Assembly: GCA_947167345.1 (NCBI GenBank)
Contig: CAMVHR010000010.1
Coordinates: 1-64,000, forward strand
From: an uncultured Treponema sp.
GTDB lineage: Bacteria; Spirochaetota; Spirochaetia; Treponematales; Treponemataceae
Direction of reading: 5' to 3'
DNA: 64,000 nucleotides
Positions within the stretch are counted from its first letter, which is position 1. Every line of letters starts with the position of its first letter. The translations under genes and the position numbers were made by a program. This document shows positions 2,772 to 51,824 of this stretch, one piece after another. The notes below the pieces were generated by a model. It saw nothing but the letters and a program-made list of their open reading frames with translations, ran no database searches and was not told where the DNA came from.

Positions 2772-2821
2772 AACCGCGATCCTTTCTTTACAGCTGTGAT
2801 TTAATATTACTGAAATGAATT

Positions 2822-2857
2822 CTACTAGAGTTAATTCTAGTAGAGTTCACTCTAGTA
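2822..2857. repeat. Overlapping palindromes upstream of the broken ATPase gene
   Basis: CTACTAGAGTTAATTCTAGTAG (2822-2843) is a 22-bp palindrome with one mismatched pair. It runs into TAGAGTTCACTCTA (2841-2854), whose 6-bp arms are perfect. The block lies 51-86 bp upstream of the ATPase start at 2771. The position suggests an operator or autoregulatory site, and the second ATPase in this window also has a repeat array upstream of its start. The remaining bases between 2772 and 3048 hold no convincing gene; the 69-aa ORF at 2869-3078 shows no family features. Confidence 0.6.
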
Positions 2858-3048
2858 ATGTTAAGTGAATGGAAATTATTTGTCAACAAGAAAAATCCTT
2901 ATTCAAACTTCGCATCCTAATATTGTCTGCAAATTTTTATAGGATTTATCAGAAGGTTTTCTTTGGTATAAATTTTCGCAAAATTAATGTGAAAATAGAA
3001 AATTCTTGTTGTGTTTTAGTAAAGCCTGAAAAACTGCTTTACTATTGC

Positions 3049-14841: not shown

Positions 14842-14853
14842 AATGAATTATAT

Positions 14854-14939
14854 GCACAAATATTAAGGTTTGTAAATTGTAATTTTGCACAAATAGTAAG
14901 GTTTTTAACTAGTGATTTTGCACAAATAGTAAGTTTTTT
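14854..14939. repeat. Three direct repeats with exact 33-bp period upstream of the ATPase
   Basis: GCACAAATAnTAAGgTTT occurs at 14854, 14887 and 14920, each 33 bp apart (about three helical turns), so all copies face the same side of the DNA. The first copy begins 13 bp upstream of the ATPase start. The spacing and position suggest cooperative binding of a regulator, possibly the ATPase itself. Confidence 0.85.
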
Positions 14940-14948
14940 AAATTCCAC

Positions 14949-49428: not shown

Positions 49429-50148
49429 TCAGTCTTGCAGTACCTTAATTGGTGTGCTGAAAGTAGATTCTTCAAGGCTGTCCTTGCGGGGACTTGTTAC
49501 AATTTTTATTTTGTAAATGCCTGATTCAAGGTTTTTAGGAATGAATACTTCCGTAATGGAACATCCTATGCTGTTATAGCGAGTGGCTCGGGTTTCATTG
49601 CCTTCTTGGTCTATAAAAAATATACCTTGTTTTTCTTCTGCTGCATCAAAGTTTAAGTGTTTGCCTTTAATGCGTAAGACATCATGGCTTACAAAGTCTA
49701 ATTCTGTCTTTTCAGCTCCCTGATTGCTTATGCTTAATAGTTCTGTAATTTTAGGAAGAATTGACCAGCCTATTCCTGCAATGCGGTAGGCTGTGGAGTT
49801 TTCCATTTCTTTTGCAGCTTCTTCCTTAAAGGTGCAGACAGTCTCAAAACGATGGTCGCCAGTTCCTGGTGTAAAACCTTCGTTTAATTTGCTTGTAGTT
49901 CCATTTGCTTTCAGATGAATGAATGCGAACGGAAGTTCTACGTTGTATCCTAGTTTTACGAAATGTTTTACACGGTCATTTAGAACGGAAAGTACAGCCC
50001 TTGCATCTGCTTCGGTGATTGTTGAGTTGTAGCCGATGATTTCCTGAATCAGCTGTTCGTAACTCAGCTCCTGATCAATGACACTTCTAAAACAGTAGTC
50101 CTTTTTGCGTGTTGAAAGTTGATTTTTATAAGCAGTAATTGCTATCAT
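49429..50148 (-). CDS. HU-like DNA-binding protein with DUF4469-type Ig-like tail
   Basis: 239 aa with AGGAG before the ATG. Residues 1-125 resemble the HU/IHF-like domain found in Bacteroidetes and treponemes (LSYEQLIQEIIGYNSTITEADARAVLSVLNDRV...LPFAFIHLKANG). Residues 135-239 are an Ig-like beta-sandwich, the DUF4469 pattern (GWSILPKITELLSISNQ, VLRIKGKHLNFDAAEEKQGIFFIDQEGNE, IPKNLESGIYKIKIVTS). Function unknown; probably nucleoid associated. It interrupts the polysaccharide locus on the opposite strand. Confidence 0.7.
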   Translation of the reverse strand: MIAITAYKNQLSTRKKDYCFRSVIDQELSYEQLIQEIIGYNSTITEADARAVLSVLNDRVKHFVKLGYNVELPFAFIHLKANGTTSKLNEGFTPGTGDHRFETVCTFKEEAAKEMENSTAYRIAGIGWSILPKITELLSISNQGAEKTELDFVSHDVLRIKGKHLNFDAAEEKQGIFFIDQEGNETRATRYNSIGCSITEVFIPKNLESGIYKIKIVTSPRKDSLEESTFSTPIKVLQD

Positions 50149-50338
50149 ATTTATTTCTCCTATAATTGTTGTTTATGACGGAATGATGGAGCCGTCGCAC
50201 CCTTGAAGATTGGCCAATCTTTTATTGTTGTTTTGTTGAACATAAATATACAGCAAACAATGGGTATGAATTTGTAGTTTAAACTTGATTTTTAAAGAAT
50301 TTTTCATTGTTTTTTTGATAATAAATCTGAGTTTTCAT

Positions 50339-50413
50339 GGCCACTGGTCATAATGATTGTGGCCAGTGGCCGTAATGATTATGAGCACTGGCCGTAATCA
50401 TTACGGCCAGTGG
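50339..50413. repeat. Palindromic repeat array upstream of UDP-glucose dehydrogenase gene
   Basis: Four copies of a CCACTGGCC-type arm alternate in orientation with TAATnATT spacers over 75 bp. The last unit, CACTGGCCGTAAT-C-ATTACGGCCAGTG (50386-50412), is a perfect 13-bp inverted repeat. The first, GGCCACTGG...CCAGTGGCC (50339-50371), is an imperfect 33-bp palindrome. It stands about 70 bp before the start of ugd, in an otherwise empty 335-bp gap with no gene seen. The local GC content contrasts with the AT-rich flanks. Confidence 0.85.
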
Positions 50414-50483
50414 AGAAAATTGTATGGTCAAATACGCTAAAATTCTTAAACAGAAATAGATTTTATATATTAGGGGTTAATTA

Positions 50484-51824
50484 ATGAACATTTCAATTAT
50501 AGGTACAGGATATGTAGGCCTTGTGTCTGGCACATGTTTTTCTGAAATGGGAAACCATGTCTGGTGTATTGATATCGATCAGAAAAAGATTGATAACCTT
50601 AAAAATGGAAAGATTCCGATTTATGAGCCGGGCCTTGAAGAAATGGTTTTGCGTAACCACAAAGATGGCCGCTTAGACTTTACGACTGACTATGCGGAAG
50701 CAATTCCTTCTTCTGATATCTGCTTTATTGCTGTAGGCACCCCACCGGGAGAAGACGGCTCTGCTGACACCCGTTATGTCTTAGCCGCTGCAGAAAGCAT
50801 TGCCAAGCACATGTGCGGCTACACTATCGTTGTAGATAAATCAACGGTGCCGGTTGGCACTTCAGAAAAGGTTCGCGCTGCCATTCAGAAGGTGCTGGAT
50901 AGCCGTACTGACAGCCAGGGGCTGGAATTTGATGTTGTTTCTAACCCAGAGTTCTTAAAGGAAGGCGTGGCTGTAAATGACTTTATGAGGCCTGACCGTG
51001 TCGTTATCGGCTGTGACAACGCCCGCTCAGAAGCTATTATGAAGCAGCTTTATGAACAGTTTACATTGAATGAGCATCCTATTATCTGCACCGACATTAA
51101 GTCTGCTGAAATTACCAAATACGCTGCAAATGCTATGCTTGCCACCCGTATCAGCTTTATGAATGAAATTGCAAGGCTCTGCGACAAGGTTGGCGGTGAT
51201 GTTCGTGCCGTAAGACAAGGCATAGGAACGGATTCCAGAATCGGCATGAGCTTTTTGCATGCTTCATGCGGTTACGGCGGTTCCTGCTTTCCTAAGGATG
51301 TTAAGGAGCTGGTTTCTGTGGGAAAAAGAAACGGCATCCAGATGCGCATTGCTACAGCGGTAGAAGACGTTAATAACGACCAGAAGTATGTTATTCCAAA
51401 CCGCATCGTAGAAAAATATGGTGAAGACCTTAAGGGTAAGACTTTTGCCCTTTGGGGACTTGCCTTTAAGCCTGAGACTGACGACATGCGTGAAGCTCCT
51501 GCAATCACTGTTGTAACCGAGCTTACAAAACGGGGAGCTAAGATTAAGGCTTATGACCCCCAGGCTTATGAAATGGCCAAGCACTACCTGGCAGATATCC
51601 CATCCGATGCTATCAGCTATGAGCCTGATATGTGGTCTGCTCTTAACGGCGCTGACGCCCTTATTCTGGTTACCGAATGGAAGCAGTTCCGCTCACCTGA
51701 TTTTAGTAAGGTAAAGGCTTTACTTAAAGCGCCTGTTATTTATGATGGAAGAAACCAGTACGATCCAAAAGCCATGAAAAGAGAAGGCATTGAACTTCAC
51801 TGTATTGGCCGCGGTTTAGTCTAA
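50484..51824 (+). CDS. ugd: UDP-glucose 6-dehydrogenase
   Basis: 446 aa; AGGGG before the ATG. NAD-binding ISIIGTGYVGLVSGTCFSEMGNHVWCIDID, then STVPVGTSEKVR, NPEFLKEGVAVNDFMRPDRVVIG, ITKYAANAMLATRISFMNEIA and catalytic Cys in SCGYGGSCFPKDVKELV. It oxidises UDP-glucose to UDP-glucuronate, the precursor used by the next gene. Cytoplasmic. It opens the co-directional polysaccharide block and follows the palindrome array. Confidence 0.96.
   Translation: MNISIIGTGYVGLVSGTCFSEMGNHVWCIDIDQKKIDNLKNGKIPIYEPGLEEMVLRNHKDGRLDFTTDYAEAIPSSDICFIAVGTPPGEDGSADTRYVLAAAESIAKHMCGYTIVVDKSTVPVGTSEKVRAAIQKVLDSRTDSQGLEFDVVSNPEFLKEGVAVNDFMRPDRVVIGCDNARSEAIMKQLYEQFTLNEHPIICTDIKSAEITKYAANAMLATRISFMNEIARLCDKVGGDVRAVRQGIGTDSRIGMSFLHASCGYGGSCFPKDVKELVSVGKRNGIQMRIATAVEDVNNDQKYVIPNRIVEKYGEDLKGKTFALWGLAFKPETDDMREAPAITVVTELTKRGAKIKAYDPQAYEMAKHYLADIPSDAISYEPDMWSALNGADALILVTEWKQFRSPDFSKVKALLKAPVIYDGRNQYDPKAMKREGIELHCIGRGLV

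What the first reader, a model, noticed from the sequence alone, without database searches (positions are those of the whole stretch)
50339..50413. GC-rich palindrome array before the capsule sugar genes
Four alternating CCACTGGCC arms with TAATnATT centres, the last a perfect 13-bp inverted repeat, sit in an otherwise gene-free 335-bp gap upstream of ugd. It resembles in design the arrays upstream of the ATPase genes, but no ATPase is here. It may be a multi-site operator, the remains of a lost ATPase gene promoter, or a recombination/inversion site.
Basis: seen in the sequence. Interest (0 to 1): 0.65.

Follow-up and report, generated by a model that had tools for sequence, protein, structure and literature searches.

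The report
Dispersed 22-bp palindrome array, Treponema
The GC-rich palindromes before ugd are one copy of a family of tandem 22-base repeats scattered between genes in this Treponema and some relatives; they look like landing strips for a DNA-binding protein, possibly one of the HU type, and are not a special switch for capsule-sugar genes.

Summary
Window 50339-50413 holds seven alternating 11-bp palindromic blocks (GGCCASTGGCC / RTAATNATTAY), i.e. a 22-bp unit with four CASTG cores (not 27 bp), in a 335-bp gap between two divergent genes: an HU-type protein with DUF4469 (49429-50148, -) and ugd (50484, +). It is far beyond chance. The same unit recurs at three other loci of this genome and at several in a relative, beside unrelated genes. 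It belongs to a wider class of 22/23-bp tandem intergenic arrays with many unrelated unit sequences, about 15 in 853 kb of this genome. Array presence upstream of ugd is not conserved: two relatives share the ugd gene pair and promoter-like sequence, and one has an array (of different sequence) while the other has none. No IS21 or RAYT transposase explains it. The lost-ATPase-promoter and inversion-site readings find no support. One signal stands out: such arrays lie within about 500 bp upstream of 9 of 30 HU-HIG genes against 2.2% of all genes in matched genomes (P 6e-7; 2.6e-5 after de-replication). I propose cooperative protein-binding arrays, possibly for HU-HIG proteins including the one encoded next door. 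The binding step is inference.

The parts
50339..50413 (.). tandem array: seven alternating 11-bp palindromic blocks, period 22 bp, four CASTG cores at 50342, 50364, 50386 and 50408
50339..50371 (.). first palindrome, 16-nt arms around 50355, mismatches only of T/C type
50361..50393 (.). middle, weakest palindrome, centre 50377
   Evidence: overlapping copies, period 22
49429..50148 (-). HU-DNA_bdg + DUF4469 protein, 239 aa; its start lies 191 bp from the array; candidate array-binding protein
50484..51824 (+). ugd, UDP-glucose/GDP-mannose dehydrogenase family; its start lies 71 bp from the array
50269..50325 (.). AT-rich stretch between the array and the HU-type gene; a 26-nt piece is identical in relative G037, and a second G037 match lies upstream of another HU-type gene; possible promoter region

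Best explanation
SHOWN: the array is one copy of a dispersed, low-copy intergenic repeat made of tandem 22-bp units with dyad symmetry. It belongs to a larger class of 22/23-bp tandem arrays, of many unrelated unit sequences, in this Treponema and its relatives. SHOWN: the class is enriched upstream of genes for HU-HIG proteins (HU/IHF superfamily), and this copy sits between an HU-type gene and ugd. INFERRED: the 22-bp spacing (two helical turns) and the inverted 11-bp half-sites make it a cooperative binding array for a dimeric DNA-bending or nucleoid protein, most likely an HU-HIG type protein that binds the copy at its own promoter and further copies elsewhere. Any effect on ugd would be incidental, by proximity. 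Units are gained and lost 22 bp at a time.
For: Unit at four loci of the own genome (window; C29:37310-37377; C115:116-170; C38:20021-20053) and at C49, C164, C237, C254 and C330 of relative G037. CASTG-N17-CASTG-N17-CASTG in 15 of 146 genus genomes, up to 63 matches in one, with 0 matches to the reversed control pattern in most. Neighbouring genes unrelated. About 15 intergenic 22/23-bp arrays in 853 kb of the own genome, at least six unit families. Dyad symmetry of the ugd unit 0.90 against 0.55 for shuffles, P 0.001; 0.82 in three arrays of the 23-bp family. HU-HIG loci: 9 of 30 have a 21-24-bp array within about 500 bp upstream, against 12 of 742 own genes, 4 of 133 genes of unrelated loci and 7 of 315 genes in matched genomes; P 6e-7, or 2.6e-5 with 7 of 28 after de-replication. 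Three of these HU arrays (L162, L172, L180) were found starting from the HU gene, not from the array. In G087 the unit before one HU gene recurs at four dispersed loci. C29 and C115 copies differ by one 22-bp unit.
Against: Binding of any protein is not tested. HU proteins usually have weak sequence specificity (general knowledge). The window's HU-type protein scores just above the HU-HIG cut-off and is best placed in HU-DNA_bdg. Other HU-HIG genes of the own genome that were read (L169, L178, L187) have no array. The HU link was noticed after the fact among many families scanned. Most arrays are not beside HU genes. Dyad symmetry is only a tendency in the class (10 of 33 arrays at P<0.05).
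Confidence: 0.45

Rival explanations
1. Neutral or selfish dispersed repeat (REP/MITE-like) with no dedicated binding protein; arrays grow and shrink by slippage and spread by recombination or by a transposase acting in trans.
For: Dispersed, flanking genes unrelated, no general position preference (divergent, convergent and co-directional gaps all occur), presence variable at orthologous ugd loci, one-unit copy-number difference.
Against: Enrichment upstream of HU-HIG genes; strict two-turn spacing across unrelated unit sequences; no RAYT over the cut-off in own genome, G012, G087 or G127; no shared flanks or terminal repeats seen between own-genome copies except the C29/C115 duplicate region.
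Confidence: 0.33
2. Multi-site operator that specifically controls ugd (or ugd and the divergent gene together).
For: Placed 71 bp upstream of ugd between divergent starts; relative G068 has a 22-bp array of different sequence upstream of ugd.
Against: Relative G128 keeps the same ugd gene pair and promoter-like sequence without an array; the array sequence recurs beside unrelated genes.
Confidence: 0.12
3. Orphan end of an IS21-type (Mu/Tn7-like) transposon, whose ends carry tandem repeats.
For: IS21 ends consist of direct repeats spaced 23 bp with GC-rich contacts separated by about 10 AT-rich bp (PMC10122671), a design like this array; two own-genome copies lie at contig ends.
Against: No IS21 helper ATPase in the own genome at E 1e-20 and none of the genus IS21 loci read carry such ends; arrays have 3-11 units, not two inverted ends; neighbours are not transposases; the partial ORF at the contig ends matches no Pfam family.
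Confidence: 0.05
4. Recombination/inversion switch or relic of an ATPase-gene promoter.
For: Palindromes; unit copy number varies between C29 and C115.
Against: No recombinase or inverted flanks nearby; ATPase-gene repeats have different sequences, periods and promoter position.
Confidence: 0.03

Closest known systems
REP / BIME elements (repetitive extragenic palindromes)
   Same: short intergenic palindromes in alternating orientation, dispersed, species-variable, potential binding sites of nucleoid proteins (PMC2817692, PMC3733652)
   Different: low copy, strict 22-bp tandem spacing, no GTAG/CGTC foot seen, no RAYT in own genome, and here between divergent gene starts rather than downstream of genes
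IS21 / Mu / Tn7 transposon ends
   Same: tandem protein-binding repeats about 22-23 bp apart with GC-rich blocks separated by one AT-rich helical turn (PMC10122671)
   Different: no transposase, no paired inverted ends, 3-11 units
Iterons and tandem operators such as met boxes (own knowledge)
   Same: tandem units spaced by whole helical turns, dyads at two centres per unit, suited to cooperative binding
   Different: no replication gene; cognate protein unknown; many loci per genome

Membership tests
REP/BIME | 20-40 bp imperfect palindrome, intergenic, units in alternating orientation | tested here: met
REP/BIME | high copy number (usually >100 per genome, PMC2817692) | tested here: not met
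   four loci in the own genome for this unit
REP/BIME | associated RAYT tyrosine transposase (for GTAG REPs) | tested here: not met
   no PF01797 match over cut-off in the own genome; a 35-position sub-threshold piece only
REP/BIME | GTAG or CGTC tag at one end of the hairpin (most REPs, PMC3733652) | tested here: not met
   no such tag adjoins either hairpin
IS21 terminal repeats | istA/istB between two arrays in inverted orientation | tested here: not met
IS21 terminal repeats | direct repeats about 23 bp apart, GC-rich/AT-rich alternation | tested here: met
22/23-bp tandem array class of this genus | at least three intergenic tandem units of 22 or 23 bp | tested here: met
ugd-specific operator | conserved at orthologous ugd loci and restricted to functionally related genes | tested here: not met
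HU-HIG cognate binding array | protein binds the array specifically | not testable with these tools
   only positional enrichment shown
Known Rfam RNA element | match above a family's gathering score | tested here: not met

The most novel reading that the evidence does not exclude
Treponema HU-HIG proteins are sequence-specific array binders, each paired with its own 22/23-bp tandem array at its promoter and at scattered chromosomal sites: a diversifying set of HU-array pairs that organise chromosome regions or form small regulons. The array before ugd would be the promoter copy of the pair made by the HU-DUF4469 gene.
Probability: 0.2. Interest if true: 0.8.

Novelty: new variant of a known kind. 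Interest (0 to 1): 0.45.

Why it matters
If the class is real biology, it gives a testable link between the poorly understood HU-HIG/DUF4469 proteins and a DNA target, and a simple explanation for much of the intergenic repeat content of rumen treponemes. If it is only a dispersed repeat, the ugd promoter reading should be dropped, which avoids a false regulatory annotation at a capsule locus.

Tried and rejected
IS21-end hypothesis: no helper ATPase and no such ends. RAYT/REP mobilisation: no RAYT over cut-off in own genome. The gene start shared beyond the C29/C115 arrays (MKEIFILEVKARL...) gave no Pfam match in its G037 version. A scan of 85,000 species genomes with an exact unit pattern found only one contig, from Treponema sp. 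RGIG5076, which matches G037 in contig length (the pattern was strict and the own genome may be left out). Rfam: no family above its gathering score. Terminator scan: none. Literature searches found no description of such arrays in Treponema; the library holds open-licence papers only. Dyad symmetry is not general to all arrays of the class.

Full report
WHAT IS THERE. Window 50339-50413 reads GGCCACTGGTC ATAATGATTGT GGCCAGTGGCC GTAATGATTAT GAGCACTGGCC GTAATCATTAC GGCCAGTGG: seven 11-bp blocks, alternately GC-rich and AT-rich, each close to a palindrome. The repeat period is 22 bp; the last 27 bp form a perfect palindrome with 13-nt arms. Four CASTG cores lie exactly 22 bp apart. A unit pattern gives 9 matches in the window against 1.0 expected, with none of 100 shuffles reaching 9; the strand folds 8.6 sd below shuffles; none of 20,000 simulated gaps had three cores in register. 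The gap runs from 50149 to 50483 and separates two divergent genes, an HU-DNA_bdg/DUF4469 protein (Pfam) and ugd.

COPIES IN THIS GENOME AND ITS RELATIVES. With three mismatches the unit is found only at four loci of the own genome: the window, C38, C29 and C115. C29 and C115 are two versions of one region and differ by one 22-bp unit. Only one of 145 relatives searched, G037, has the same subtype under the stricter 31-base pattern, at more loci than this genome; it is very probably Treponema sp. RGIG5076. A looser pattern, CASTG three times at 22-bp spacing, occurs in 15 of 146 genomes of the genus, 63 times in G037, 25 in G012 and 11 in G098, with no match to the reversed control in most genomes. 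The bases between the cores differ between arrays.

A WIDER CLASS. In 853 kb of the own genome, 17 of 40 intergenic tandem-repeat rows have period 22 or 23. They fall into several unrelated unit families; the largest alternates TTCTTAAGAA-like and TTGTGTCGCAA-like blocks at 23 bp and lies beside genes for a methyltransferase, a YchJ-like protein, a zinc peptidase, HSP20 and others. Dyad symmetry is strong for the ugd unit (0.90 against 0.55 in shuffles) and for several 23-bp arrays, and is a tendency only for the rest.

NEIGHBOURS. The genes around 37 arrays are mostly unrelated. One family stood out: HU-HIG. Starting from 30 HU-HIG loci of ten array-bearing genomes, 9 have a 21-24-bp array within about 500 bp on the upstream side. 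The comparison values are 12 of 742 genes in the own genome, 4 of 133 in unrelated loci and 7 of 315 in 378 kb fetched from five of the same genomes. Fisher P is 6e-7, and 2.6e-5 after collapsing orthologues and duplicates to 7 of 28. Three of the HU arrays were met only by starting from HU genes. In G087 the array before one HU gene has the same unit as four dispersed arrays. The window array, 191 bp from the start of its HU-type gene, falls in the same distance range. The association was found after looking at many families and needs an independent count.

NOT A ugd SWITCH. In relatives G068 and G128 ugd faces the same divergent gene, and both keep a TTGATA-17-TATTAT sequence before ugd; G068 has a GC-rich 22-bp array upstream of it and G128 has none. 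Other relatives' ugd loci show no array. So an array can be absent, or of another sequence, at a conserved ugd promoter. No terminator-like site was found.

OTHER READINGS. IS21 ends share the design (direct repeats 23 bp apart, GC-rich contacts one AT-rich turn apart; PMC10122671), but no IS21 helper ATPase was found in this genome and the genus IS21 loci read have no such ends. REP/BIME elements share the palindromes and alternation (PMC2817692, PMC3733652), but copy number, RAYT and GTAG/CGTC tag are not met.

CONCLUSION. Shown: a real, non-random, dispersed 22-bp tandem palindromic array of a genus-level class, with copy-number change in whole units and with enrichment of the class upstream of HU-HIG genes. 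Inferred: cooperative protein binding, with HU-HIG-type proteins as the leading candidates. Not shown: any binding or regulation.

Noticed in passing
window 14853-14944; own-genome loci L231, L234, L236, L237, L238, L239, L240, L243: Many of the 17 DUF4143/AAA_14 ATPase genes examined are preceded by their own repeats (33-, 22- or 23-bp tandem, or short inverted repeats), each of different sequence, mostly close to the start codon: possible self-operators.
   Followed up: partly
own-genome L207, L205, L220, L224, L197, L196: Dispersed 23-bp tandem family alternating TTCTTAAGAA-like and TTGTGTCGCAA-like blocks, at several loci beside unrelated genes.
   Followed up: partly
L147 (G000:C21) and L138 (G012:C205): A stretch of several hundred bases beside a solo CCAGTGG unit looks nearly identical between two different species, suggesting recent transfer.
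   Followed up: no
window 2801-2864: A separate 64-bp palindromic array (15-bp unit TCTAGTAGAGTTAAC) in AT-rich DNA.
   Followed up: no
L021 4440-4489, L006 1-60, L067 near 4363: An ORF beginning MKEIFILEVKARL follows the arrays at C29 and C115 and, altered, one in G037; no Pfam match.
   Followed up: partly
window 50269-50294: A 26-nt AT-rich motif identical in G037; another G037 match lies just upstream of an HU-type gene.
   Followed up: partly
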